Shown: piece after piece, positions 783-30,100 of the stretch
Layout of the letters: every line of letters begins with the position of its first letter
How positions within the stretch are numbered: position 1 is the first letter of the stretch
Assembly (NCBI GenBank): GCA_945902745.1
Contig: CAMDNE010000005.1
Span: forward strand, 62,001-126,000
Direction: 5' to 3'
Source of the DNA: Chitinophaga pinensis
GTDB taxonomy: Bacteria; Bacteroidota; Bacteroidia; Flavobacteriales_D; Crocinitomicaceae
DNA: 64,000 bases
Made by a program: the position numbers and the translations under genes
The notes under the pieces: model-generated
The model's database searches: none
Seen by the model: only the letters and a program-made list of their open reading frames with translations
Told to the model about the DNA's origin: nothing

Positions 783-2488
783 CCTATTTCTAATTGATGG
801 TGTTTGGCAATAAATTTATCGAGCTGTGTTCTATCAAAGCTACTCAATTCAAAATTTGTAATTGTTATAATTCTATTTTCTGTGAATTGCAATTGGATTC
901 CGTTACTTATGCGAGAAACATGCAACAATTCTTTTATTAAAAGTTCTTTTTTCCTTCCAAAAACAGGATGGTAAATAACTGATTCCATTTCAAAACTAAC
1001 CAGTGGAATTGTAAGTCTTCTTATTCCAAGGGCAAGAATTAATGCTCCTAATGGCCATAATATAATTCCAATGCCAATAGCTGATACCAAGTAATAAAAT
1101 CCAAGTAAGACAACAAAAATTCCACTGAGTACAAACAAATAAGAAAGCCACAAATTACGCTGAATAGTGAACGCTTGGTTTTCAATTCTTTCTAACATTT
1201 TAAAAGAAATCATTCCTGTTTGCAGATAAAATGCACGTTGTTTTTTTGCTACTTCAACAATATAGTGATCGTTAATTATTGATTTCGCAGTTGGTTCAAA
1301 TAAATTTAATAAATCTCTAACGTCTGACTCAGATAAGGTTGACTTCTCGGCTAAAATGCGAATTTCTCTTTCTCTGTCTTCCACTCTGCGGGAAATGTCG
1401 ACGAAGAAATGCTTGTTTACAGCATCATAAAAATTCTTGCGTTGCACTTGAAGAATCCCAAGTGGGTGCTGTTTTGCCAAATAAATAGATGTGATTGTTT
1501 CAGCAAACGCCAAAGACATGTTTTTCTTTTTTGGAAGATACGGAACAATTGGTTGCATTCTTTTTGCCCTGAAAAGCATAAATAAGATTAAACCTAAAAA
1601 GGTTAATCCCAGTGCTACCATGAAAGCTGGACTTTTAAGAATAAACTTTAAATAACTGCTGTCGGCCCGCTCAGCATCACCTTCTGCGTTGTCCATTGCA
1701 GAATCGTCCATAATTTCTTCATCCAAAAGCCTTCCTAATTCTAATAAATAAACAGCCTTTTCTTTTGACAAATTGTTGAGCACAAAAGAAGTATAGCGAT
1801 AACCTTCGGTTCGTTTAAGTTGATAGTTAAAAAATATTTCCGGATTTGTATGGAGAAGAATCGACCCTTTTCCTAGTTTGATGCGAATAAAATTACTCAT
1901 CTCCATAAAAGAAGACAACGATTGATAATTTGAATCTATCGGTTGAATTGCTGAAAATGCCTTCCACTCATGTGCCAACGTATCATTTTGATAGAGGTAA
2001 TACATTGGGAATTTGTTGCGTTGAATAAAAATAGTGACACTATCAGCAAAATCATAACTTATTTCATATGATTTGAAAAAGCGTTCAATCAAATTTTGGG
2101 TTAAATCGTTGTAACTGATAAACAAATCACTTCCTTCTTTAACACGGTTCAAAATTGTATCTATTTCGCGATTTTGAAGACCAAATCTATTTCCAACAAA
2201 CAGCATCGTTACGTTCTTCTTTTTGCTTAAAATTGAATCCAATTGAATCCAATCAGTAATTGGTTGAATTATTTTACCTGAATCAACATGAGCGCGCAAA
2301 AGTTGATCAAAAAGGAAAAGTCCATATGGATCCTTATCATTCGACTTAAATTGTACATCCCAATTTTCAGAAACATATGAATTTCTTATGTTTTTGACCG
2401 TCGACACTGGATTGCCTAATAGCCATACCACCATCGCGACAAAAGCCAAGATGAAAACCACTAACCCTATTTTCGTTTGCTTATTCAT
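779..2488 (-). CDS. DUF4350 domain membrane protein
   Basis: 569 residues. A single N-terminal membrane segment (about residues 7-25) is followed by an extracytoplasmic domain containing the DUF4350-type stretch SNDKDPYGLFLFDQLL. A second membrane segment lies near residues 285-305, and a hydrophobic hairpin near 445-490 precedes a PH-like C-terminal part. The family has no established biochemical role; in Bacteroidota it regularly accompanies MoxR, DUF58 and DUF4129 genes, and a membrane partner of the MoxR ATPase is the usual inference. The gene overlaps DUF4129 upstream by 8 bases and moxR downstream by 4. Confidence 0.85.
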   Translation of the reverse strand: MNKQTKIGLVVFILAFVAMVVWLLGNPVSTVKNIRNSYVSENWDVQFKSNDKDPYGLFLFDQLLRAHVDSGKIIQPITDWIQLDSILSKKKNVTMLFVGNRFGLQNREIDTILNRVKEGSDLFISYNDLTQNLIERFFKSYEISYDFADSVTIFIQRNKFPMYYLYQNDTLAHEWKAFSAIQPIDSNYQSLSSFMEMSNFIRIKLGKGSILLHTNPEIFFNYQLKRTEGYRYTSFVLNNLSKEKAVYLLELGRLLDEEIMDDSAMDNAEGDAERADSSYLKFILKSPAFMVALGLTFLGLILFMLFRAKRMQPIVPYLPKKKNMSLAFAETITSIYLAKQHPLGILQVQRKNFYDAVNKHFFVDISRRVEDREREIRILAEKSTLSESDVRDLLNLFEPTAKSIINDHYIVEVAKKQRAFYLQTGMISFKMLERIENQAFTIQRNLWLSYLFVLSGIFVVLLGFYYLVSAIGIGIILWPLGALILALGIRRLTIPLVSFEMESVIYHPVFGRKKELLIKELLHVSRISNGIQLQFTENRIITITNFELSSFDRTQLDKFIAKHHQLEIG

Positions 2489-3395
2489 TCGAAGGATTGA
2501 GTGATTTATAATACTTTAGTAATGTTGGCTGAAGTTGTTCAAAATTTTGTTTGTCGATTTCGTATTCTCCATACCAAACTAGGTCATAGATTCGAACGCA
2601 TTCCCTAAAAACATCTACTTGAGGCTTTCCATTAAGCTCCAATATATAGTGGTGATTGGTTTTATCTTTTTTCCAGTGAATCCAGTTTTTTCGAATCAAT
2701 TCTTTCAAAATAAACGTAAAATAGATTCTAATACCTTCTCTAAAATCACCTCTTTCAATTGCTTCCTCTAATCGTTGTTCGAGTTCTGTTTTGGTAATCA
2801 CTTCTGGATTCCAATCATTTTGAATGTCTTGTAATACCGTTTTATTCGACGGCTGTTTATTCTTTAACCAGAAATAAATGACAATTATTAGTCCTATAAT
2901 AAGTAGACTAAACAACAGTATTTTCCAAAAGGAAAATGGGATATTTGGACCATCAATATCAGGCAAATCTGGAGCATCAATATCTGGTGGGTCAAAGTCA
3001 GGTAAAGTTATTGGGTCTGGTTTTTGAATTTCAGGATCTGCGCCTAAAGTCCCGCCACTTTTACCTGAATTCTTACCAAATTGCTTTTCTCTATTCTGTT
3101 TTAGCTGTTGCGGATTGTATTGAATTCCTTGAGAACTTCCATTGCTCGTAGTTGAATAATTATTTTCCTCCTCCTTTAATGAGGATGGACTTGAGCCATA
3201 CCAATCTTGAGGACCTTTGTAATTTTTCTTCTTTTTGTATTTGAGGTATTCCTTTTCTTGTTTCCAGACTTTCTTTTTCAGATCTTTTCCATTAGTTTGC
3301 GAAAAACAGGATAGTGCTACTAAAAGGAACGATATGGAAAGAATAATTTTACTCAAAATCAACTGATTTTTCTTGGTATCGATTTCTTTTTCCAA
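2481..3395 (-). CDS. DUF4129 domain protein
   Basis: 304 residues. It starts with a hydrophobic export signal (LSKIILSISFLLVALSCFSQ), then a charged low-complexity region, then a run of Asp/Pro-rich repeats (about residues 118-155: DPPDIDAPDLPDIDGPNIP), one membrane segment (about 157-177) and a C-terminal cytoplasmic DUF4129 region (RIYFTFILKELIRKNWIHW). Its biochemical role is unknown. The ATG at 3395 overlaps the upstream SpoIIM-like gene by 47 bases. A TTG at 3362 would cut the overlap to 14 bases and put the start directly before the signal peptide, so the start is uncertain. Confidence 0.8.
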   Translation of the reverse strand: MEKEIDTKKNQLILSKIILSISFLLVALSCFSQTNGKDLKKKVWKQEKEYLKYKKKKNYKGPQDWYGSSPSSLKEEENNYSTTSNGSSQGIQYNPQQLKQNREKQFGKNSGKSGGTLGADPEIQKPDPITLPDFDPPDIDAPDLPDIDGPNIPFSFWKILLFSLLIIGLIIVIYFWLKNKQPSNKTVLQDIQNDWNPEVITKTELEQRLEEAIERGDFREGIRIYFTFILKELIRKNWIHWKKDKTNHHYILELNGKPQVDVFRECVRIYDLVWYGEYEIDKQNFEQLQPTLLKYYKSLNPSNE

Positions 3396-5268
3396 ATTTA
3401 AGAAACCCTTTTTTCAAACTTGCCGCTTCGGTTTTATCCACTTCTGAAAAGTAGCTGATTCCAGTCGTAATTGCCACTAGTGGAACAATTCCAAAGAAAA
3501 ACAATACGTAAAACAATTGACGAATTATGTTTCCAACGACCATATAATCATCGGTGAATTCTCTACCAATTCTTTTCGTAAAACCAGAAAGCATGTCCAA
3601 GAAATCTTTGACCGTAGGTTCTTGTTGATATCCTTCTTGAATGCTAAAAACAAATGCAATCGGCTGTGACATGATCGTCACAAAAGCTACTAAAAGAACA
3701 ATTACCAATAGCGATTTTCCAAAATAATTCTTACTAAAAGAAAATCCTTTTTTGAGTCGTTTACCAAATGGAGCATCGTCTAATCCCATTGTTGCTCCAA
3801 TTAAATAGAAAAAAGGAATAAGAACAAAAAGCCAACACAATAAATACCAAGGAAGACAAAAAACAATTGCCACTAAAAACAAATTTCCCAACCAAATTGG
3901 AATAAATCTTTTTTTACAATACTGAAAATAACTTTTCCATGAAAAAACCTCATCCATTGTTTTCATTGTCCAAAAAACAGCCGAAAAAATAATCGTAACG
4001 ATAAAAGTCCACCCAATACAAACCAAAATATCTTGTGTTGAATGGAAATCATATCCAATCATGATTGACAATTGAGAAGCCCAATCGTACCAGTATTCGA
4101 ACATCAATTCTGAGTAACGCGCATTGTCTTGCAAGAAAATTAAACCAATGGCCAGAGGAAGCGCAAGGGTAAAAATGATTTTTCCAAATTTGCCGAAATA
4201 TAGCCTATAAAACTGAAATGAATCTGCTAAAACTTGTCCGACAGTTCTAATCTTTAATAATACGAAAGGTAATGGTTTACGAAATGGTGCTGTTTCTTCT
4301 TGATCTACAAGATGAGGATATTTTCTTGCGATATAGACTGGATAAAAAACATAAACAAATAGAATTAATGCAAACGAAGCAAAGATAATTGCCCATTTCG
4401 ACCATTCTGGTAAGTCTTGGTAATTATGTGTTACATAACTTTCTAAAAAACCCGCTGCAATGATGAAAGGCACCAAACTCATCATTATTTTTAAACCTCT
4501 TTTTGCAGACAATTGCATCGATTGTAATCGTGTATATGATTTTGGAAATAACAAACCATTTCCGGCCGTTAAACCTGCTCCGCCAGCCAAAACTATTGCT
4601 GAAATTTCAAAAGACCCATGAATCCAAATTCCTAAAAAACTAGTGATTAAAAGTCCTTTCATGTAAAAGAAATACTGAAAAGCCCCAAGCATTACTCCAT
4701 TATAAAATAGGAGGATATGTGTTCCAATCGTAAAGAAAAAGCCGATAAAGAAGGTTAGAAAAGCAACTTTCATGTTATTTGTGGTGATCTGAACAAACAT
4801 ACTGAGTTGATCATCACTTTCATAAACAGCTAAAGGATTTCCGTTTTTAATATTATCGAGAGTCGTTTCGACATAGCCATCACCCATCACCATTCTTGGA
4901 AAATCAGGGTCGAAATGTGTTGTGATAACTCCAACAAAACAGTAAACTAGAAAAGCAACTAAGGCAAAAAGTAAGTTTTTTCTCGACCGATAGATTTCTA
5001 ATGGCAAGGAAATTTGCCAAACAGTAATCAATTTTTTAAGTGATTCGCCCTTTTGTTTGTGCACTCCAGTAAAAATCTTTTGTGCTAATTGATTGAGGTA
5101 AACCCGAACTGTTCTTCGTTTGTAGAATGTTTGGGCATAGCTCAAATCATCCGTTAAATCCATATACAAATTACTCAATTCTTCAGGGTCATGAGAGTTT
5201 GAAGCATACAGTTTTTCGAAGCGTGTCCACTTCTCCTTATTTTGATCTATGAAGGATGTTTCTTTCAT
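3349..5268 (-). CDS. SpoIIM-family (DUF95) membrane protein, double length
   Basis: 639 residues. The first half matches the stage II sporulation protein M family as found in Bacteroidota: a soluble N-terminal region (about 1-95), a first membrane segment (LLFALVAFLVYCFVGVITT), then further segments and the glycine-rich stretch GIWIHGSFEISAIVLAGGAG. The second half (about 330-610) holds another five to six hydrophobic segments not expected in a stand-alone SpoIIM of about 320-330 residues, so this looks like a fusion to a second polytopic domain. It is the first gene of the operon seen here, and its start at 5268 follows a repeat array. The name is historical: these bacteria do not sporulate, and the function is unknown. 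Confidence 0.82.
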   Translation of the reverse strand: MKETSFIDQNKEKWTRFEKLYASNSHDPEELSNLYMDLTDDLSYAQTFYKRRTVRVYLNQLAQKIFTGVHKQKGESLKKLITVWQISLPLEIYRSRKNLLFALVAFLVYCFVGVITTHFDPDFPRMVMGDGYVETTLDNIKNGNPLAVYESDDQLSMFVQITTNNMKVAFLTFFIGFFFTIGTHILLFYNGVMLGAFQYFFYMKGLLITSFLGIWIHGSFEISAIVLAGGAGLTAGNGLLFPKSYTRLQSMQLSAKRGLKIMMSLVPFIIAAGFLESYVTHNYQDLPEWSKWAIIFASFALILFVYVFYPVYIARKYPHLVDQEETAPFRKPLPFVLLKIRTVGQVLADSFQFYRLYFGKFGKIIFTLALPLAIGLIFLQDNARYSELMFEYWYDWASQLSIMIGYDFHSTQDILVCIGWTFIVTIIFSAVFWTMKTMDEVFSWKSYFQYCKKRFIPIWLGNLFLVAIVFCLPWYLLCWLFVLIPFFYLIGATMGLDDAPFGKRLKKGFSFSKNYFGKSLLVIVLLVAFVTIMSQPIAFVFSIQEGYQQEPTVKDFLDMLSGFTKRIGREFTDDYMVVGNIIRQLFYVLFFFGIVPLVAITTGISYFSEVDKTEAASLKKGFLKFGKRNRYQEKSVDFE

Positions 5269-5310
5269 TTTGCGTCGAGGTGTAAATATAAAAGAAATTG
5301 GTTAATTAAG

Positions 5311-5540
5311 TGTGATGAGTTTAGAGTTGATAGTTGAAAAAAGTGAGGAATGATGAATGATGAGCGATGAGCGATGAGTTGATAGTTTAGAGTTGATAGT
5401 TGATAGTTGATAGTTGAAAAAATGATGAGTGATGAGTGATGAGTTGATAGTTGATAGTTGATAGTTGATAGTTGAAAAATGATGAGTGATGAGTGATGAG
5501 TTGATAATTTAGAGTTAAAAAAAGTGATCAGTGACATGAG
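5311..5540. repeat. Heptanucleotide tandem repeat array (GATGAGT / GATAGTT units)
   Basis: This spacer is built from runs of two related 7-bp units, GATGAGT and GATAGTT, in blocks separated by short A-runs. The composite block (GATGAGT units, then GATAGTT units, then GAAAAA) occurs twice between about 5422 and 5478, with degenerate versions on both sides. An open frame across it translates to repetitive Asn/Tyr/Gln/Leu/Ser text and is not a gene. Short tandemly repeated repetitive (STRR) sequences of 7 bp are known from other phyla. The array lies just upstream of the SpoIIM-like operon start. Confidence 0.9.
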
Positions 5541-5551
5541 ATTAAATGAAT

Positions 5552-5615
5552 GTCCCTTAGGGACTAAATAGCTCTAGCAAATTTTAATTTGCGTAAATTT
5601 TTATCCCGTAGGGAT
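5552..5615. repeat. Cluster of three small palindromes (REP-like)
   Basis: Three short hairpins sit within 64 bases: GTCCCTTAGGGAC (5552-5564), GCAAATTTTAATTTGC (5577-5592) and ATCCCGTAGGGAT (5603-5615). The first and third are related (TCCC-N3-GGGA). Arrays of such palindromes are a common form of extragenic element in Bacteroidota; that identity comes from general knowledge, not from a search. They lie just past the stop of the anti-sigma-like gene and could also act as its transcript end, though no T-run follows. Confidence 0.6.
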
Positions 5616-5643
5616 TATACCATTTTTTGAATAGGTATTTCAA

Positions 5644-6645
5644 TTATTTTGAAGTTCGATGTGAAATCTCCAGTTTCCCAATTTTGAGGTAAAAACCACC
5701 AGATCTTTTTCTTGTTGCTTTGGCTGTTCTGAAATCTACTTCTTGTTTCACAACATTTGCTAATCGATTGGTAATTGGGCTGATTGGGTTATTCATGTCA
5801 TTAAATCCAAGAATTGTATAATCAGAAGGTTCTTCATTTACTCGCGGATCGACATTAGTATAAGCCATTTCATTTTCAATAATATCGTACGAGAGAGCAC
5901 TATTTTTTAACTCTTTAGGATCTCGAGGAATCAACCTTTTAATAAAGAAATTCGCTTTCTTTTCTGAAAGTACAGCGGCAAAATTTATATCTTCCGAGGT
6001 GTTTTCAAACACAGGAACATAAGAATCGGACTCTGTTTTTTGACTTTTATTGTTTGAAACATTTTTAATTTGCTCATTTTTTTGATAAGGCACTTTTTTA
6101 ATTTCTTTGTGTTTCGAAATAGAAGTTTCGTTATCTGTAATCCCATTTGTAGTTGAATTCCATAAGAAAAATAATATGGCAACACTGGCTGCAACGGCCA
6201 AAGAAATAAAAGGCCAAAGCACCATTTTTTTGGATTTCTTTAACGAATCCTTCTCTGTAAATACAATAGATTTATCTGCAAGAAGATGTGTTGCAGCATA
6301 TATTTTTTGTATTTGAATCAATTCCGGGTGTTTTGAAACAAAGTCAGTCAATTCAGCTTTCTTCTCTTCTGACAATAAATTTTCCGTTTCTGCTATTAGA
6401 AATTGTTCTGAATTATTGAGTGTTATTGCAGTTTCATTGAAAACCAATTGTTTCAAATTTGCTTTGAATGATGAATCTAAAGATGCGTTTTCAAATCCAA
6501 AAATTGGCAGTTCTTCGTCCTCAACTTTCAGATGCGGGTTTTCCTCCAAAAACGCAAGCAACAACGCAGCATCTTCCTCACTCAAATTCCCTTCAAGGAA
6601 ATCAAGGTAAAAAGCTTCGTAATTAAATATGCTTATGCGTTTCAT
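5644..6645 (-). CDS. Putative anti-sigma factor (single-pass membrane protein)
   Basis: 333 residues from the ATG at 6645. An in-frame ATG 27 bases upstream lies inside a repeat and is less likely. The N-terminus (FNYEAFYLDFLEGNLSEEDA) is the pattern seen in cytoplasmic parts of Bacteroidota anti-sigma proteins. One membrane segment (about residues 153-172, VLWPFISLAVAASVAILFFLW) is followed by a polar, probably periplasmic C-terminal half without a recognised domain. It lies 94 bases downstream of the ECF sigma factor gene on the same strand, which fits a sigma/anti-sigma pair. No zinc-binding HxxxCxxC motif was seen, so assignment rests on context and topology. Confidence 0.65.
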   Translation of the reverse strand: MKRISIFNYEAFYLDFLEGNLSEEDAALLLAFLEENPHLKVEDEELPIFGFENASLDSSFKANLKQLVFNETAITLNNSEQFLIAETENLLSEEKKAELTDFVSKHPELIQIQKIYAATHLLADKSIVFTEKDSLKKSKKMVLWPFISLAVAASVAILFFLWNSTTNGITDNETSISKHKEIKKVPYQKNEQIKNVSNNKSQKTESDSYVPVFENTSEDINFAAVLSEKKANFFIKRLIPRDPKELKNSALSYDIIENEMAYTNVDPRVNEEPSDYTILGFNDMNNPISPITNRLANVVKQEVDFRTAKATRKRSGGFYLKIGKLEISHRTSK

Positions 6646-6651
6646 ACTAAC

Positions 6652-6737
6652 AATTTGTAATTTATAATTCAATTTTTAAACACATAGACACATAGGTCAC
6701 ATAGGTTTCAAAATTTGTAATTTGTAATTTGTAATTC
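6652..6737. repeat. AATTTGT heptamer repeats with ACACATAG repeats between
   Basis: The short spacer between the sigma and anti-sigma genes carries two runs of the 7-bp unit AATTTGT (6652-6670 and 6712-6737, the latter 3.7 copies). Between them is a run of ACACATAG-like units (about 6678-6706). A close relative, AATTCGT, forms a 4.7-copy array at 40807-40839. The runs begin or end within a few bases of the start and stop codons of the two genes. Confidence 0.8.
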
Positions 6738-6739
6738 CT

Positions 6740-7225
6740 TTATACCACTAATTCTAATCGTTTGATGTAGTCTTTCAAAGCTTGTCTTGCCCGAAAAATA
6801 TACACTTTCACTTGTGATTCACTCAATGCTGTTATTTCAGCAATTTCAGCGTAATTATAACCTTCATAATCGCGCAATAAAACAACCGTTTTCTGTATTT
6901 CTGGTAATTTATCTAATGCTTCATTCAAGATTTTTTCTAAATCGAAGGAAATAGAAAATTCACTTGTTGCAGTATGTTCCACTTTTTCAAAATCACCGTT
7001 TCTTTTTTCTTTGTTTACCCAATCTACAATAGCATGATACGCCGTTGTAAACAAATATGACTTCACCTTTTCATATGCAACTTCTTCATGTTTGACCCAC
7101 ACTTTCATGAATGTTTCCTGCACCACATCCTTAGCAGACATCTCATTTTTGAGATGCTTCAAAGCGAATCGGTAGATGTTGTCCGAATACGCATCAATCG
7201 CCAAGTTGTATTCTTTGGTAGTCAT
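6740..7225 (-). CDS. ECF-type RNA polymerase sigma factor (sigma-70 family)
   Basis: 161 residues, the normal size for an extracytoplasmic-function sigma factor. Region 2 is visible near residues 30-45 (DVVQETFMKVWVKH) and region 4 with its helix-turn-helix near 120-155 (YNYAEIAEITALSESQVK, then YIFRARQALKDYIKRL). The acidic linker between them is ordinary. The product would direct RNA polymerase to a small promoter set and be held inactive by the membrane protein encoded just downstream. Its own leader contains a long imperfect inverted repeat (7247-7305). Confidence 0.94.
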   Translation of the reverse strand: MTTKEYNLAIDAYSDNIYRFALKHLKNEMSAKDVVQETFMKVWVKHEEVAYEKVKSYLFTTAYHAIVDWVNKEKRNGDFEKVEHTATSEFSISFDLEKILNEALDKLPEIQKTVVLLRDYEGYNYAEIAEITALSESQVKVYIFRARQALKDYIKRLELVV

Positions 7226-7246
7226 TTTATCTTTGGATTCCGATGT

Positions 7247-7305
7247 TATACCGAATCGCTTTCAAGTAAGGCTTTTAAAAAGCCAACAGAAAGTCGTTCG
7301 GCATA
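7247..7305 (-). other. Nested inverted repeat between the glycosyltransferase and sigma-factor genes
   Basis: An outer imperfect inverted repeat pairs 7247-7263 with 7289-7305 (17 bases each side, a few mismatches). An inner perfect hairpin, GGCTTTT / AAAAGCC, lies at 7270-7284. It is 22 bases upstream of the sigma-factor ATG in transcript sense, and about 100 bases after the glycosyltransferase stop. It could be an untranslated-leader structure or a leftover extragenic element; no T-run follows it, so it is not a standard terminator. Confidence 0.5.
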
Positions 7306-7402
7306 ATACTCCTATTTCAATTAAACCATCTTATTAGCGGTTTCGTATTAGACTAGCAAGTTACAAAAAAGTTACAGTAGGCGGAAAAATAAAATTATTC
7401 AA

Positions 7403-8863
7403 TCACATATTTGCACTTATCTCAAAAAGCTCGGCATTATGGGTGTTGTCGATGCAAATACACTTAAATGAATTTTTTAAAATCGTTTTAAGGCTGTCAT
7501 TATTTACCAGTACTTTGTCATTCACTGAAAGGGTTGAAATATCATACACCATTTCAATTTTTTCTCCTTTTGCTGCTAATTTATATTTGTAAAACAACAA
7601 AGACCCATTCCATCCTTGGTGAAATACTTTTAATCCATTTAGAGATTCATTCTTTTTGATTTTGTCAAAGAGATACATTTCTTTTGATTCTAATTTTATT
7701 TCACCGTCACTGATTGAATTTCCTTGTGACTTACTAAATTGAATTAAATAAGGATAGAGAAATAGGAGCGTTACAATCATGCTCTTTTTCAAAAAATTTA
7801 AATGCTTTTCTCCTTTTTTGATGTGTTGAACTAAATAATAAATTGGATAAGCCGCAATTAAAGCTAGATATGGAAATAGTGGCATATCGTACCAATCTAA
7901 TTTGGTAACCGAAATAGTGATTATTATCAGATAAACGACAATAAACAAGAAGACTATTTTTAGAATGTTGGTATATTGATTTTCATCTTTAAAAAAGATA
8001 AATAAGGCACCTACAACAAAGAAAGACGACCAAATTGAAAACCTTAAATTGAACAAGTTATCTAAATAAAAGAAGGTTGATTGCGAATGATTTTCTACCA
8101 CAGTTGTCATTCTTCCAGCATCTTTGAAAAAGACTTCATTTAAGTATCCAGGGGCATCTAATTCTCGCAAATACAGAAGACTTCCAATTGAAAAAACAAA
8201 AAACAGCATTCCTAAAATGAAATACCAATTTATAGTAAATGCCTTGAAGTACTTTTTATAGATTAAAATCATAATATATGCTGGAATAAAAAGAAGTCCA
8301 GCGTATAATTTTACTGAAACAGCCAGTGTTATAAATAGGAAAAACAAAATGATATTCCTTTTTTCCTTTGTGAGAATGAATTCAATAAAATAGAGGTTTG
8401 CAATTAAAACAAATAAAGTAAGTAGTGAGTCTGAATCAGCTGTTCGGGCGGTATGATAATGAACGAATCCATAAGAAGTCAACAAAATTAATGCGGCAAT
8501 CCATGCCCATAAATAATCAAAATGTTTGGCTGTAAATCTGAATAAAATCAAAACCGAACAGCAAGCCGCCATGGCTGATGGCAATCTTACAGCGAATTCA
8601 GTATATCCAAAACATTTTATACTTATGATTTGCAACCAACTGGTTAAAGGAGGTTTTGTATTGAAATAGTCAGGGGAATTATCAAAATACAAAGAAAACC
8701 ATTTCCCATTGTGCATCATTTCATAGGAATTCACCGCAAACATGGATTCGTCCCACCATCTCATGTGAAAACTTCCCAATTTCAAGAAGACAATTGGAAA
8801 AATTAAAAGTATTAATAAAAGGTAATTAAGATAAACTTTCCTTTCCTTTCCTAATGAAATCAT
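7403..8863 (-). CDS. GT39/ArnT-like membrane glycosyltransferase
   Basis: 486 residues with about ten hydrophobic segments. The first extracytoplasmic loop carries the acidic motif RWWDESMFAVNSYEM, expected in GT-C enzymes that use a polyprenyl-phosphate sugar donor. The segment NTKPPLTSWLQI a few residues later is also typical of the ArnT/PMT group. Such enzymes add a sugar to lipid A, glycans or proteins on the outer face of the inner membrane; the acceptor cannot be told from sequence. It stands alone, with the sigma-factor gene 177 bases downstream on the same strand. Confidence 0.85.
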   Translation of the reverse strand: MISLGKERKVYLNYLLLILLIFPIVFLKLGSFHMRWWDESMFAVNSYEMMHNGKWFSLYFDNSPDYFNTKPPLTSWLQIISIKCFGYTEFAVRLPSAMAACCSVLILFRFTAKHFDYLWAWIAALILLTSYGFVHYHTARTADSDSLLTLFVLIANLYFIEFILTKEKRNIILFFLFITLAVSVKLYAGLLFIPAYIMILIYKKYFKAFTINWYFILGMLFFVFSIGSLLYLRELDAPGYLNEVFFKDAGRMTTVVENHSQSTFFYLDNLFNLRFSIWSSFFVVGALFIFFKDENQYTNILKIVFLFIVVYLIIITISVTKLDWYDMPLFPYLALIAAYPIYYLVQHIKKGEKHLNFLKKSMIVTLLFLYPYLIQFSKSQGNSISDGEIKLESKEMYLFDKIKKNESLNGLKVFHQGWNGSLLFYKYKLAAKGEKIEMVYDISTLSVNDKVLVNNDSLKTILKNSFKCICIDNTHNAELFEISANM

Positions 8864-8918
8864 TTTAAAAATCGATTAGATTAAAGACAAGATAAAACAA
8901 TTTTAATCAAAATACGAT

Positions 8919-9239
8919 TTATTCTCGAATCGCCTTAATTCCAGGCAATTCAATTCCCTCCAAATATTCGAGCATTGCTCCACCACCAGTAGAAACATAG
9001 GAAACTTTATCAGCCAACTTGAATTTATTAATTGCAGCAACAGAATCACCTCCACCAATCAATGAAAAGGCACCTTTTGCTGTTGCTTCGACAATTGCAT
9101 TAGCCACGTCTTTCGTTCCTTGTTGGAAATTTTCCATTTCAAAAACACCCATTGGACCATTCCACAAGATCAATTTAGAATTTGCAATAATTTCTCTGCA
9201 GGCTTTTGAGGTTTCAGAACCTGTGTCTAATCCCATCCA
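8919..9239 (-). pseudogene. Detached second copy of the pgk 3' end
   Basis: This open segment encodes 105 residues identical to the C-terminus of the full pgk at 10419-11615, except that it ends one residue earlier. The nucleotide match (8923-9239 against 10426-10742) has no gaps and 11 differences in 317 bases, all of them synonymous. At 9240 the homology stops abruptly within the codons before MGLD. It lacks the N-terminal domain and the rest of the nucleotide-binding domain, so it cannot be an active kinase. It is best read as the displaced 3' end of an earlier resident pgk allele (inference). Confidence 0.92.
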
Positions 9240-9382
9240 TTAGGAATTTCGCTCCGATACGCAGGATATGTTATCCTTCGGTCGACGAATTGTTTATTTT
9301 TTTTCCTAATTCGTGAACAATCTAAAGAAGATTTTCAAATAGCATATCTTTCGAAGCCGCAAGTTCTGAATCACTGCGGTTA

Positions 9383-10243
9383 TCAGTCATTCAATTTTTC
9401 TAAAATGGTTGGAAGAAATTCATTCAGTTTAGAAAACCCGAACCATTTCTTCCCTAAATCCTTCAGTGAAGCACCGATATGGTATACTTCCTTTCTGTCA
9501 AGAATCAGAAATCGGTCGTGGGACGTTTTCAGCGTTTTAATATCAATTCTTGGATATTGCTCGTTGTGTTTTGCCAGATCTAATTGCAATTGAGCAGTTA
9601 ATTTTTGAGTGTAAATGGTGGCGTTAGACTTAGGATTCCGTTTGCTCAACATCAACAAGGTGGACTCGTCGACGTAATTATCAATTAGAATGATGGATTT
9701 GTTAGCACTTTTAATGAGGTCATTCGCGAAAACATACGCATCGAATAATTGCCCTTCGAAAAAAATGCCTTGGGCAGGGAGTTCATTGGTCGAAATAAAA
9801 ATTTCAATTTCATCCACTCTCTGTGTTAATTTACCGATGCCTTTATTCAATTTTAACTCGAGTTGATTGATTCGATTATTAATTGTAAAGCCTTCAAGTA
9901 AATGGTTGGTTAAAACGCGATTTGCCCAAATTCTGAAATGAATTCCTTGTTTGGACTTTACTCTGTATCCAACAGACAGAACAACATCGAGATTGTAAAA
10001 CTCAATGTTTCTTTTTACTTTTCTCTTACCTTCAAAATGAACTATCGCAAAATTTGCGACAGTTGGAATTCCTTCCAATTCTTCATTTAAAGCATTGCTA
10101 ATATGTTTACCTATTGTTTTAACATCTCTTCCAAAAAGAGTTGCAATTTGTTGACGATTCAACCAGACAGTCTCATTTTCAAGGCGAACTTCTATGTGTT
10201 CAGCTGCCTCATTTGGTCGGTAGATTATGATTTCATTCTTCAT
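9383..10243 (-). CDS. RhuM-type protein with PLD-like C-terminal half
   Basis: 286 residues. The N-terminal half matches the RhuM family: EVRLENETVWLNRQQIATLF, a region resembling a DNA-binding helix-turn-helix, then FYNLDVVLSVGYRVKSKQG and FRIWANRVLTNHLLEGF. The C-terminal half (about 155-286) resembles a phospholipase-D-like fold (IILIDNYVDESTLLML, then SHDRFLILDRKEVYHIGASL), with an HxR in place of the classical HxK. Proteins of this build occur near mobile and restriction-type loci in Bacteroidota; their function is not established. The gene lies between the two pgk 3' ends, consistent with arrival by transfer. An ATG overlapping its stop opens a 22-codon frame (9322-9390) that may be a remnant. 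Confidence 0.85.
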   Translation of the reverse strand: MKNEIIIYRPNEAAEHIEVRLENETVWLNRQQIATLFGRDVKTIGKHISNALNEELEGIPTVANFAIVHFEGKRKVKRNIEFYNLDVVLSVGYRVKSKQGIHFRIWANRVLTNHLLEGFTINNRINQLELKLNKGIGKLTQRVDEIEIFISTNELPAQGIFFEGQLFDAYVFANDLIKSANKSIILIDNYVDESTLLMLSKRNPKSNATIYTQKLTAQLQLDLAKHNEQYPRIDIKTLKTSHDRFLILDRKEVYHIGASLKDLGKKWFGFSKLNEFLPTILEKLND

Positions 10244-10255
10244 AGTTTACCTTAA

Positions 10256-10390
10256 GTTAGTGAAAATTATCATTTGAAACAGACGTTCATCGAAAACAAT
10301 CCGAAAAACAGCAAAGAATTTTTGGCTTCTCTGGGAGGACTTTTCTCAAATCATCCACCAATCGATAAACGCATCGCAATTTTAGAATGA
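10256..10390 (+). pseudogene. C-terminal remnant of an M48 (HtpX-like) metallopeptidase
   Basis: On the plus strand, a frame without a start codon ends at the TGA at 10388-10390 and reads as the end of an M48 family peptidase: an IENNPKNSKEFLASL stretch followed by LFSNHPPIDKRIAILE. The 'HPP-x(3)-RI' ending is typical of this family. A stop codon at 10253 closes the frame 5', and no catalytic HExxH is present, so only about 44 codons remain. The remnant points towards pgk and lies between the rhuM gene and the intact pgk 3' end, marking a recombination joint. Confidence 0.6.
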
Positions 10391-10418
10391 AGATTTTAAT
10401 AATTAACTTTTTGCTTTA

Positions 10419-11615
10419 TCAATGCTCTCGAATCGCCTTAATTCCAGGTAATTCAATTCCTTCCAAATATTCGAGCATCGCACCACCACCAGTAGAAACA
10501 TAGGAAACTTTATCAGCCAACTTGAATTTATTAATTGCCGCAACAGAATCACCTCCACCAATTAATGAAAAGGCACCTTTTGCTGTTGCTTCGACAATTG
10601 CATTTGCCACATCTTTTGTTCCTTGTTGGAAATTTTCCATTTCAAAAACACCCATTGGTCCATTCCACAATATCAATTTAGAATTTGCAATAATTTCTCT
10701 GCAGGCTTTTGAGGTTTCAGAACCTGTGTCTAATCCCATCCAACCATCTGGAATTTCACCAATTGGAACTTCTTTTCGGTTCGCTTCGTTGTCAAATTTA
10801 TCGGCAATAATTGCATCAGTTGGAATGTACAAATTCACACCTTTTGCTTTTGCTTCAGTAATTATTTTATTTGCCATGTCAATGTAGTCATCTTCAACTA
10901 GCGAATTTCCAACTTTTCCACCCATTGCTTTCACAAACGTGTAAGCCATTCCTCCACCAACAATCAGGTTGTCTACTTTATCCAATAAACGCTCAATAAT
11001 TGTAATTTTTGAAGAAACTTTTGCTCCTCCCACAATAGCAGTTAATGGTTTTTCATCGCTGTTCAATACTTTGTCAACACTTTTTATTTCTGCTTCTAAC
11101 AACAATCCAAACATTTTGTCATTTGGGAAAAACTTCGCAATAACAGTTGTGCTTGCATGTGCTCTGTGAGCCGTTCCAAATGCATCATTTACATACACAT
11201 CGCCGTGTTTTGCCAATTGCTCTGCAAAGCTTTCTGTTCCTGCTGTTTCCCTTTTGTGAAAACGAACATTTTCCAACATTAATACTTCGCCTGGTTTCAA
11301 GTTAGCACTCATTGCCTCTGCTTCTGGTCCAATACAATCTTCTGAAAATTGAACAGGAACACCCAATAAATCGGATGTATGTTTCACAATATGATGCAAC
11401 GAAAAGCGGTTTTCAGAACCATCTTTTGGTCGGCCTAAATGCGACATGATCACCACACTTCCTCCATTTTTCAATATACATTGAATTGTCGGCAAAGCCG
11501 CACGAATGCGCGTATCATCGGTTATCTCTAGTGTTTCTTTGTCCAAAGGAACGTTAAAATCTACGCGAATAAGGGCTCTTTTTCCTGAGAAATCGTAAGT
11601 GTGAAAGTCTGACAT
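10419..11615 (-). CDS. pgk: Phosphoglycerate kinase
   Basis: 398 residues from the ATG at 11615, the usual size (about 395). The long upstream extension in frame (to 11756) runs through a repeat and is not expected to be translated. Family motifs are present: [13 protein letters not shown], substrate-binding [26 protein letters not shown], and GGAKVSSKI. The C-terminal nucleotide domain ends in [19 protein letters not shown] and [13 protein letters not shown]. It catalyses the ATP-generating step from 1,3-bisphosphoglycerate to 3-phosphoglycerate in the cytoplasm. The gene is not in an operon here; its 3' third is duplicated at 8919-9239. Confidence 0.98.
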
Positions 11616-11712
11616 TTTATAGTTTTTTAATCGAATTGCAAAGTTAATTGAGAACATGGAAGTTAAGGCATTGAGAATAGATTTTTTTCCACATACATGT
11701 TCTATTTTGACT

Positions 11713-11804
11713 TCCTCCCTTGAGGGAGGACTGAGGAGGGTGGAAAAAACTAACAAATCGAATATTTAATATTCCACCCCCCTTTATCCCCCCTCAAGGG
11801 GGGA
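11713..11804. repeat. Facing pair of 32-bp REP-like elements
   Basis: Two copies of a 32-base element lie in opposite orientation, 28 bases apart (11713-11744 and the reverse complement of 11773-11804). Each starts with its own palindrome (TCCTCCCTTGAGGGAGGA in the first, a C-richer version in the second) and ends in AGGrGGGTGGA. The differences are mostly T/C changes that keep the pairing. The pair fills the divergent spacer between pgk and xseA and could fold into a large cruciform or a double hairpin. Likely an extragenic palindromic element; any regulatory effect is speculation. Confidence 0.8.
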
Positions 11805-11834
11805 AATAAAAAAAAATTCCTAACTTCATCCTTC

Positions 11835-21806: not shown

Positions 21807-23063
21807 TTATATCCTATTTAATGCTTGTTCAATATCAGCGATTAAATCAGAATAATGCTCCACCCCAACTGAAACTCGAACTAGCTTTTCAGAAATAAAC
21901 ATGACGCGTTTATCTTCTGCAGGCACATCTGCATGCGTCATTGTTTGTGGATGTTCGGCCAAACTTTCTGTCCCACCAAGAGAAACTGCCAACTTGATTA
22001 ATTTCAATGAATCCAAGAATTGAAAAGCTTCTTTTTCTCCTCCTTTTATGTCAAATGCTATCATTGCACCAGCACTTGTGTATTGACGGTTAAAGATTTC
22101 TTTTTCTCGTTCATTACCTACTTCATTGATGAATCCCAAATAATATACTTTTTCCACTTTCGGATGATTTCTCAGGTATTCTGCTACATATTTCGCTGTT
22201 GTAGCTTGTTGATCCATTCTAACTTTAAGCGTTTCCAAGCTTCTCATCAACAACCAACCTGTCCATGGTCCTGCCATGTTTCCTAAGAACGTTCTTAAAC
22301 CTTTTACACGGCCCATCAATGCTTTTGACCCCAAACAAGCTCCGGCAATAACATCAGAATGACCACCAATATATTTTGTAGCTGAATACAATACTAAATC
22401 AGCTCCATGTTTTAAAGGATGTTGCCAAATTGGACCCATGTATGTATTGTCAACAGATAAGATAACAGGTTTTTCAGCAGTTGTAAAATGTGTTTTTATT
22501 TCAGCACACATTTCAATATCAATCAGCGCATTTGTAGGATTTGCTGGCGTTTCAATATGAATCATAGTTAAACGATCTCCCTTTCCAGTTGCATTGATAC
22601 GGGCAATAATTTCTTCTTTTGTATCTGTTGCATGAAAACCAATAGATTCAATTTTCATTTTCTTTAAGAAATGGTTGATAAAATGATCTGTTCCACCATA
22701 AACTGGTCTGCTGTATAATAACAAATCTCCTGGCTCCATAAATTCCATCATTGCAGTTGATATTGCCGACATTCCACTTTCAAAAACTGCGCAATCTTCA
22801 GCACCATCCCATAAACACAATCTGTTTTCAAGAATTTCTAAATCTGGATTATTCAATCGACTATAAATTAAGCCAAGCTCTTCTCCTTGTTCTTTTTCAC
22901 GCAATCCATACGCTAATTCAAAAAACCGTTTCCCCTCCATTGCTGTATTAAACACGAAGGTTGAAGTTTGAAAAATTGGACATTTAATCGCACCTTCAGA
23001 CAATGAAGGTTTGTATCCGTAACTCATCATTAAACTTTCTGGTTGCATTTTAGAATAATCCAT
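21807..23063 (-). CDS. Cys/Met-metabolism PLP enzyme (methionine gamma-lyase / cystathionine gamma-synthase type)
   Basis: 418 residues. The PLP-binding Lys is in YSATKYIGGHSDVIAGA (about residue 212), and other family motifs are clear: YSRLNNPDLEILENRL, FESGMSAISTAMMEF, LLYSRPVYGGTDHF, MIHIETPANPTNALID and the substrate site VSLGGTESLAEHP. The fold is shared by gamma-synthases, gamma-lyases and O-acetylhomoserine sulfhydrylases, and sequence alone does not settle the reaction. The divergent Lrp-type regulator 144 bases away fits an amino-acid-induced lyase, as known for mdeA-type systems. Confidence 0.85.
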   Translation of the reverse strand: MDYSKMQPESLMMSYGYKPSLSEGAIKCPIFQTSTFVFNTAMEGKRFFELAYGLREKEQGEELGLIYSRLNNPDLEILENRLCLWDGAEDCAVFESGMSAISTAMMEFMEPGDLLLYSRPVYGGTDHFINHFLKKMKIESIGFHATDTKEEIIARINATGKGDRLTMIHIETPANPTNALIDIEMCAEIKTHFTTAEKPVILSVDNTYMGPIWQHPLKHGADLVLYSATKYIGGHSDVIAGACLGSKALMGRVKGLRTFLGNMAGPWTGWLLMRSLETLKVRMDQQATTAKYVAEYLRNHPKVEKVYYLGFINEVGNEREKEIFNRQYTSAGAMIAFDIKGGEKEAFQFLDSLKLIKLAVSLGGTESLAEHPQTMTHADVPAEDKRVMFISEKLVRVSVGVEHYSDLIADIEQALNRI

Positions 23064-27105: not shown

Positions 27106-30100
27106 TTATCTAATTAATGTTAGATTTCCTGATTCCTCAACTGTTGTTCCATCAAATAAAGTAGCAACTAATTTGTAAGCAAAAACTCCAGAATTCATAG
27201 GCTTACCTTTATAAGTTCCATCCCAACAAACTAGCGGATCTGTTGTTTCAAATACTTTTTCTCCCCATCTGTTATAAATAGCATAACTTAACTCCGCTAT
27301 ACAAGTTCCATAGACACATTGTGTATTGTTCACATCAGGTCCAGTTCCATTTGGAGAGAATACAGTTGGTACATATACCTCTCCGCATATTACTTGAATT
27401 ACTATCGTCACATTATCCGTTCCAGTGCAGCCAGAAGCATCTGTTCCAGTAACTGTATAAATTGTTGTTGAAGATGGAGTTGCAATTGGATTAGCACAAT
27501 CAGTGCAACTCAATCCATTTGATGGTGTCCAGCTATAAGTTGTAGCACCTGTAGCATTTAATTGAACAGATTCCCCTTGTTGAATTGTTGTTGAAACAGG
27601 TGTTGAAACAATTACTAATGACCCAGTTGAAACAACCGTATAATTTTCTGTTACTATGCAACCAGTTCCGTCAGTTACAGTAACAGAATAAAGCCCTGCT
27701 ATTAAATTTGAAATTGACGAAGTCGTTTCTCCGTTCGGATTCCATAGGTATGCATAGCTACCCGAACCACCGCTAACTGCAGTGCTAATTTGACCATTTG
27801 TTGAACCGCAAATAATATCTGTAACTGTTTCAGTTATTACTATTTGAGTTGGTCCTCCAATTGTTACCAACAATGAACTAGAACATCCGGCTCCGTCAGT
27901 AACAGTAGCTGTATAATTCCCCGCAGTCAAACCTGTAGCTGAGGCCGAAGACCCTCCAGTTGGTGTCCAAGCATACGTTAATACACCTGTCCCACCCGAC
28001 CCTAAAACAACAGCTGCTCCATCATTATCATTGAAACAAGTAACATTTGTTGATGATGTTAATGAAATTGCAGGCGCTCCAACTGGAGCTGAAATTACAG
28101 TAACTGTTGCGGTAGAAGTACAACCGCTAACAGTAGTTACAACATCATATGTTCCAACAGTTAAACCGCTAAAGACTCCACTTGTATTTGTTTGAGCTGC
28201 AACCACAGGAGATGTGCCCGTTACGGTGTAAGTTGTTCCTGCTGCTGGAGCAGGAACTGTAACAGATATTGTACCTGTTGGCACTGCACAAGTAGGTAAA
28301 GTTGTTACACTTGATGTTGGCGCCGTCGGATTTGAAGGTTGAGCATTTATAGTAATTAAAGTTGCTGTTGACGTGCATCCTCCAACTGTTGTTATTATAG
28401 AATAATCACCAGATGCAAGACCTGTAAACACACCTGTAGTATTTGTTTGTGATGCAACAACTGGTGCTGTTCCTGTAATCGTATAAGTAGTACCTGCAGC
28501 TGGAGTTGGCACTGAAACTGTGGCTGTTCCAGTTGCAATAATACAAGTAGGTTGTATAAGAGTTGCCGTCGGCGCACTTGGCGTTAAAGGTTGGGCATTT
28601 ACAGTTAATGGTGTTGGAGAAGAATTACATCCTGCAATTGTCACAATAAGGGTATAATCTCCAGAATTTAAAGGGTTAAAAATACCTGTTGCATTTGTTT
28701 GTGCAGCAACCACTGGAGTAATTCCAGTTAAGGTAAAGGTTGTTCCTACGGCTGGCACAGGTGCTGTAACAGTTACTATTCCTGTAGCAGAAACACAAGT
28801 TGGCTGAGTTATAGTTGCTGTTGGAGCTGTTGGAGCTCCTATTGCTGCATTAACAGTTAACGCAGTAGTTGTTGAAATACAACCATTAATAGTAGTTATT
28901 ACCGTGTAATTTCCAGTTGCAAGACCACTAAATATTCCTGTAGCATTTGTTTGAGCAACAACAACCGGGGCCGTTCCAGTTACTGTATATGTAATACCGG
29001 CTGCTGGAGCTGGAGCTGTGACAGTAATTGTACCCGTTGAAATTGAACAAGTAGGTTGAGCAGTTACACTTGCTGTAGGTGCAACAGGATTTGCTGGCAC
29101 AGCATTAACAGTTAAAGAAGTCACCGATGAAATACAGCCATTCACCGTAGTAATTATTGAATAGGTTCCTGGTGCTAATCCACTAAATATTCCTGTAGAA
29201 TTTGTTTGAGCAGCAACAACTGGAGTAGTTCCCGTTATCGTATATGTAACACCGATTGCAGGTGCTGGAACTGTAACAGTTAATATTCCTGCTGGTGCCA
29301 CACAAGTCGGCTGAGAAGTTACACTTGCAGTTGGTGCGGCAGGATTCGCTGGCACAGCATTAACACTCACAGAAGTAAATGGCGTATTACAACCACTAAC
29401 TGTTGCCATAACTGAATAAGTTCCGGGAGCTAATCCACTAAATATTCCTGTCGCATTTGTTTGAGCTGCAACAACGGGAGAAGTTCCAGTTACCGTATAA
29501 GTAAGTCCGGCTACTGGAGCTGGAGCTGTAACAGTAATTGTTCCTGTAGTAAGAATACAAGTCGGTTGAGTTGTAATAGTTGCTGTTGGTGCAGTCAGTG
29601 CAGCAGGTTGAGTGATCGTAACAGTAGTTGTGCCAGGACAAAGATTTGCATCTACAACATTAATAGTATAAGCGCCTGCAGACAAATTCGTTTGTGTTGG
29701 CCCATTCAAACTCCCAGAAACCCATGTATAAGTGTAAGGAGCAAGTCCACCACTAGCTGATACTGTTGCAGAACCCGTTGAGTTTCCATTACATAAAACG
29801 TTCGTTTGAGCTGTTGTTGTTAATGTAATTGTTGGACAAATAACAATCGTACAAGCAGGAATGGCAGCTAAATTTGCATAGGTAACTAGTGTTCCTAAAT
29901 TATCAACAACCTGAATAGGATATGTAGCTGGTGCCGGTATATTTGAGCCAGTGGCAAATGTTGTCCATGAAGACACTGGAGTTCCAGCAACAGTAAAAAT
30001 TCCACAATAAGAGCCAAAACCAGCAATACATGGTGTGGTAAGGACAGAATTCTGCCAAGAATATGTTGGTATTCCATTGGAAGCAGTTAACGTCCCATTT

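What the first reader, a model, noticed from the sequence alone, without database searches (positions are those of the whole stretch)
8919..10742. Duplicated pgk 3' end differs only at synonymous sites, flanking a transferred rhuM segment
The copies (8923-9239 and 10426-10742) align without gaps and have 11 differences, yet the encoded residues are the same in both. A dead duplicate made inside this genome should also collect amino-acid changes. Synonymous-only divergence means the two sequences separated while both were still in working pgk genes. So one 3' end probably came from a related strain with the rhuM segment, leaving the old end displaced. This resembles how some integrating elements restore the gene they enter, but with a protein-coding gene and no integrase in view.
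Basis: partly seen in the sequence, partly recalled or inferred. Interest (0 to 1): 0.72.

Follow-up and report, generated by a model that had tools for sequence, protein, structure and literature searches.

The report
Recombination scar beside the pgk gene
This bacterium carries a second copy of the end of its pgk gene, most likely because DNA from two related strains with different genes behind pgk was spliced together, trapping a suspected phage-defence gene between the two ends; it looks like ordinary strain-to-strain recombination with one ragged joint, not a new kind of mobile element.

Summary
In detail: 8923-9239 and 10426-10742 match over 317 ungapped bases with 11 differences, all synonymous third-position changes. 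The copies have different histories. Copy A, its flank and the glycosyltransferase (GT) are nearly those of congeners G021 (1/317) and G006 (0/165); the full pgk (B) differs from G021 at 12/317 and 42/1191. G021, G023 and G006 have pgk followed directly by GT, without rhuM. Congener G003 has pgk followed by an array of rhuM-like and AAA/DUF4143 genes. Two arrangements behind pgk exist, and this genome holds pieces of both.

From 7600 to 9239 it is 99.6% identical to G021 against a 92.2% local mean, and this tract ends at the A/insert joint. Best reading: recombination with one homologous and one illegitimate end. No tyrosine integrase matches this contig, and the pgk body lacks A's affinity, against site-specific integration. 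The 317-base tree alone does not reject A+B as sisters (p 0.206). New example of a known kind.

The parts
6740..7225 (-). ECF-type sigma factor gene; left limit of the G021-like tract lies in or beside it
   Evidence: Pfam Sigma70_r4_2/r2; differences to G021 fall from 9 per 100 bases at 6700 to 1 at 7000
7403..8863 (-). glycosyltransferase (PMT_2) gene, part of the G021-like tract
   Evidence: 98.5% aa to G021
8919..9239 (-). copy A: displaced, truncated pgk 3' end with the G021/G006-type stop and flank
9239..9253 (.). joint between copy A and the rhuM segment; short imperfect similarity GGAATTTC / GGACTTTTC
   Evidence: not significant alone
9254..9382 (.). trailer of the rhuM segment, shared with the G003 array
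   Evidence: 9242-9771 matches L032 3338-3866 at 94%
9383..10243 (-). RhuM-family gene (286 aa), PADLOC candidate PDC-S05
10262..10390 (+). relic of the end of an M48 peptidase gene, convergent with pgk
   Evidence: 59% to the L155 protein over 39 residues, E 8.1e-7; reading frame; no Pfam hit for the 42-aa piece itself
10419..11615 (-). full-length pgk (copy B is its 3' end, 10426-10742)

Best explanation
Two arrangements behind pgk exist among these strains: pgk-GT-sigma factor, and pgk followed by a rhuM (defence-candidate) array. This genome is a recombinant of the two. Most likely its resident locus was pgk(B), M48 relic, rhuM. A fragment from a G021-like strain, holding the end of pgk (A), GT and the sigma factor, recombined homologously near the sigma gene (about 6.7-7.0 kb) and was joined at its other end, without real homology, to the rhuM segment, as in homology-facilitated illegitimate recombination (HFIR). 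The fragment's end lay 317 bases inside pgk, which leaves a truncated extra pgk end; the working pgk was never interrupted and A is debris. Shown: different affinities of A and B, the two arrangements in relatives, the tract and its end at the joint. Inferred: the direction, a linear incoming DNA, a joint made by microhomology, and that tract and joint are one event.
For: A is 1/317 from G021 and 0/165 from G006, B 12/317 from G021. The A-type flank after the stop is in G021 and G006. pgk-GT without rhuM there in G021, G023 and G006. G003 has pgk followed by rhuM-like and DUF4143 genes, and the two long matches of the window's insert to that array have 88% and 94% identity. Identity to G021 is 99.2% over 6990-9239 against a mean of 92.2% for 214 overlapping windows; it falls left of about 7.0 kb and ends at the joint. 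The M48 relic beside B sits where L154 and L155 have an intact convergent M48 gene, so B keeps an old flank. In HFIR most illegitimate joints show 3-10 bp microhomology (PMC3240628, introduction read).
Against: Direction is not shown: G021, G006 and G023 share pgk-GT, so by parsimony pgk-GT is the older state of this clade and rhuM the newcomer. HFIR usually deletes recipient DNA; no deletion can be seen. The similarity at the joint is weak (543 of 5000 random 25-mers as good). The 312 columns do not reject A+B as sisters (AU p 0.206), and relative-rate counts with G003, G002, G008, G013 and G018 as outgroup show no significant difference, three of them with more states unique to A. No mechanism of DNA uptake is shown: one dprA match, but that family also rings in control genomes such as E. 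coli. No reads to check the assembly.
Confidence: 0.45

Rival explanations
1. Same kind of recombination, opposite direction: the resident locus was pgk-GT, and a fragment carrying pgk(B), M48 relic and rhuM from another strain came in, recombining homologously on the pgk/xseA side and joining illegitimately inside the resident pgk, which left A displaced.
For: pgk-GT is shared by G021, G006 and G023, so it is the likely older state of this clade; a pgk-rhuM haplotype that could donate exists in G003.
Against: The G021-like tract would then be a separate event that by chance contains the joint; only a small part of the surveyed contig lies in such tracts. No right-hand limit of an incoming tract was found.
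Confidence: 0.33
2. Decayed site-specific element that integrated in the end of pgk and supplied a replacement end, as e14 does in icd.
For: Anatomy: displaced gene end with mostly silent changes, functional gene kept (e14/icdC: 165 bp, 12 changes; PMC11148124, passages).
Against: pgk body 29/873 from G021, displaced side 7/1640; no PF00589 match on the contig; no second pgk end in 100 tested loci. Serine recombinases were not searched.
Confidence: 0.05
3. In-genome duplication of the pgk end with the insert, followed by replacement of A-GT or of pgk(B) by homologous recombination with another strain.
For: The segment alone does not reject A+B as sisters (AU p 0.206); exchange tracts are present.
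Against: Needs an extra event, and the recombination must end at the edge of the duplicate.
Confidence: 0.08
4. Assembly chimera of two coexisting strains.
For: A-GT is nearly G021-like in a 92% background; the near genomes include metagenome bins (titles).
Against: The joint is at non-homologous sequence, where assemblers rarely switch (general knowledge); other G021-like tracts lie in the same contig without such joints.
Confidence: 0.09

Closest known systems
Homology-facilitated illegitimate recombination (HFIR)
   Same: One homologous end and one end joined with little or no homology, small size (PMC3240628, abstract and introduction read).
   Different: Inferred from anatomy; no recipient deletion can be seen and the microhomology is imperfect and not significant.
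Prophage e14 in icd of E. coli (icdC)
   Same: Displaced 3' end of a central-metabolism gene: 165 bp, 12 nucleotide changes, two conservative replacements, gene kept functional (PMC11148124, passages; PMC6379469 gives 163 bp, passages).
   Different: Here no integrase or prophage; gene body and displaced end differ in affinity, which e14-type integration does not predict.
PADLOC defence candidates PDC-S05 and PDC-S01 in a variable interval between conserved genes
   Same: The rhuM-like protein matches PDC-S05 and the two G003 AAA/DUF4143 proteins match PDC-S01; gene content between pgk and the sigma factor varies.
   Different: No defence function tested; such candidates were found by guilt-by-embedding and most are unvalidated (PMC12988326, passages).

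Membership tests
HFIR product | one side joined by homologous recombination | tested here: inconclusive
   G021-like collinear tract with a fall in identity at about 6.7-7.0 kb; that this limit belongs to the same event as the joint is inferred.
HFIR product | other side joined at none or 3-10 bp of homology | tested here: inconclusive
   GGAATTTC against GGACTTTTC at the joint; 543 of 5000 random 25-mers as similar.
HFIR product | recipient deletion of similar size | not testable with these tools
   The pre-event locus of this strain is unknown.
Site-specific integrating element at a gene end | integrase gene in the element | tested here: not met
   PF00589: six matches in the genome, none on contig C5. 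Serine recombinases not searched.
Site-specific integrating element at a gene end | gene body and displaced end both belong to the host allele | tested here: not met
   Differences to G021: 29 of 873 in the body, 7 of 1640 on the A side; Fisher p 7.6e-9, with 30 entered for the body in the script.
Site-specific integrating element at a gene end | same duplication recurs in relatives | tested here: not met
   No second pgk end in 23 near and 80 named loci by tblastn, nor in the 100 of 103 tested by blastn; three near contigs end inside pgk (G003, G006, G010).
RhuM family | Virulence_RhuM domain | tested here: met
   PF13310, E 2.1e-21, residues 61-145.
PADLOC PDC-S05 | near full-length profile match | tested here: met
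   PDLC04879, residues 2-284, E 5.6e-120.
PADLOC PDC-S05 | anti-phage activity | not testable with these tools
   No assay; candidate family.

The most novel reading that the evidence does not exclude
The end of pgk is a preferred landing place in these bacteria for integrase-free defence cassettes (RhuM or ORF6N front ends on a shared C-terminal part, with AAA/DUF4143 partners) that spread between strains by carrying along the 3' ends of neighbouring genes (pgk, M48 peptidase), so that core-gene ends act as homology handles for reshuffling.
Probability: 0.08. Interest if true: 0.6.

Novelty: new member of a known kind. Interest (0 to 1): 0.3.

Why it matters
It is a readable case in which a partial gene duplication with only silent changes is best explained by splicing of two strain haplotypes, not by a dead in-genome duplicate or an integrating element. 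It also shows that the interval behind pgk in this genus and near relatives is a variable slot that takes up different cargo, defence candidates included.

Tried and rejected
Integrase-type insertion: disfavoured by the affinity of the pgk body and the lack of PF00589 on the contig. Simple in-genome duplication: disfavoured, but not rejected by the tree (AU p 0.206); relative-rate tests were significant with G021 (11 against 0) and G023 (7 against 1) and not with five other outgroups. Homology of A past 9239: not significant. An intact M48 gene in the genus: the L155 protein matched 1 of 26 genomes, the relic itself; G003 holds a short M48-like DNA piece (89% over 74 bases). Four of the loci from weak DNA hits to the relic showed no M48 end. 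rhuM behind pgk elsewhere: 1 of 21 near loci with at least 1500 bases downstream (G003) and 0 of 71 named loci; some named loci are the same genomes as unnamed ones. Phage link: three viral contigs encode relatives at 52-57%, not followed; PHROGs gave one weak hit for the window protein and anti-repressor families for the G003 ORF6N protein. tRNA target: none in the window. pgk as a known insertion site: one literature search listed two unrelated papers; no wider claim is made.

Full report
Observation. The segments 8923-9239 and 10426-10742 align over 317 bases without gaps and differ at 11 places, all third codon positions, with the same residues encoded. B is the end of a full-length pgk (11615-10419, minus strand); A is an isolated end that stops one codon earlier (IRE* against IREH*). 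A random set of 11 changes would be all synonymous with a chance of about 1e-7 to 1e-6. The same segment in other working pgk genes is nearly as silent (B against G003: 40 synonymous and 0 non-synonymous; G002: 40 and 1; G023: 30 and 3; G008: 47 and 6).

Where each copy belongs. The closest congener with a complete locus, G021, has pgk followed directly by the glycosyltransferase, and so have G023 and, on a contig that begins inside pgk, G006. A DNA search with the insert found nothing in these three genomes and six matches in G003. A differs from G021 at 1 of 317 sites and from G006 at 0 of 165, and its flank after the stop is theirs; B differs from G021 at 12 of 317 and over the whole gene at 42 of 1191, spread along the gene. 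In a tree of 25 rows (three of them partial) A groups with G021 and G006 (94/81, not starred) and B stands apart; the test of A+B as one clade gives p 0.206, so this segment alone does not reject it. Relative-rate counts depend on the outgroup: with G021 11 states are unique to B and 0 to A, with G023 7 and 1; with G003, G002, G008, G013 and G018 the difference is not significant, and with G002, G008 and G018 more states are unique to A. Many B alleles are thus found elsewhere in the genus.

An exchanged tract ends at the joint. Against G021, 214 overlapping windows of 2250 bases (those with over 2000 aligned bases, from 20 kb left of the window to its end) average 92.2%, and 6990-9239 has 99.2%. 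The other windows among the 15 most similar begin 12-15.5 kb left of the window; shorter stretches near 22 and 30-31 kb also reach 98-99.6%. From 7600 to 9239 there are 7 differences in 1640 bases; between 6000 and 6799 there are 5-23 per 100 bases, and there (5501-6500) this genome is nearer to G006 (94-96%). To the right, the pgk body differs from G021 at 29 of 873 sites. The G021-like tract therefore ends where copy A meets the rhuM segment.

The other arrangement. On a G003 contig that ends inside pgk, pgk is followed by a RhuM-family gene, an AAA/DUF4143 gene, an ORF6N gene with the same C-terminal part, a second AAA/DUF4143 gene and a rhuM fragment. The two long matches of the window's insert to this array have 88% and 94% identity. 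PADLOC profiles call the two rhuM-like proteins tested PDC-S05 and the two ATPases PDC-S01; such candidates are mostly unvalidated (PMC12988326, passages). Beside B the window has a relic of the end of an M48 peptidase gene, convergent with pgk. In L154 and L155 an intact M48 gene stands in that place, and in L150, L161 and L172 further along; Pfam confirms M48 in all five, and LemA for the next gene in L155, the only one tested. The interval between pgk and the sigma factor is short (64-157 bases) in six near genomes (G010, G024, G015, G007, G013, G014) and holds other genes in several relatives.

Mechanism. One event can join the two arrangements: homologous on one side, illegitimate on the other. 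At the joint pgk has GGAATTTC and the G003 array GGACTTTTC, which would fit the 3-10 bp microhomology of HFIR (PMC3240628, introduction) but is not significant alone. Which DNA came in is open. The tract argument favours A-GT as newcomer (my 0.45); gene-order parsimony favours rhuM and B (0.33). Integrase-type origin would leave pgk body and displaced end with one affinity, which they do not have, and no PF00589 match lies on the contig. A chimeric assembly cannot be excluded without reads.

Conclusion. The nearest precedents, e14 in icd and HFIR, are known, so this is a new example of a known kind.

Noticed in passing
L032 (G003 C129) 3473-4407 and 6067-6920: Two genes of one array share a C-terminal part (300 bases at 95%) but have front ends of different families (ORF6N and RhuM), as if front ends were swapped on one back end.
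   Followed up: partly
L090 (G020 C18) 1161-4090: A second place in the genus with rhuM genes on both sides of a gene that looks like the AAA/DUF4143 ones (not run through Pfam). The 5' end of the window's rhuM matches copies in G020 and G009 at 91% over 147 bases.
   Followed up: partly
window 11705-11812: Palindromic repeat (arms of 41 nt, 80% complementary) between pgk and xseA, not covered by the alignments to G021 and G023; five further partial matches in this genome. Possibly a small mobile repeat.
   Followed up: partly
window 22001-22500 and 30001-31000, and 10-18.5 kb left of the window: Further stretches of about 98-99.6% identity to G021 in a 92% background, with a dip near 16 kb left: exchange between the lineages.
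   Followed up: partly
pgk-sigma interval in L038, L039, L042, L150, L154, L155, L159, L161, L164, L172: Different genes fill the interval in different relatives (for example a VWA/YfbK protein in L038, M48 in L154 and L155), so it is a variable slot.
   Followed up: partly
L032 end, L033 start, L034 end: Contigs of G003, G006 and G010 break inside pgk; the G003 break lies about 10 bases from the end of the 317-base repeat, so a similar duplication there cannot be ruled out.
   Followed up: no
window 5265-5537: Low-complexity open frame made of short repeats (STHHSSLIIFQLSTINYQL...), probably not a gene.
   Followed up: no
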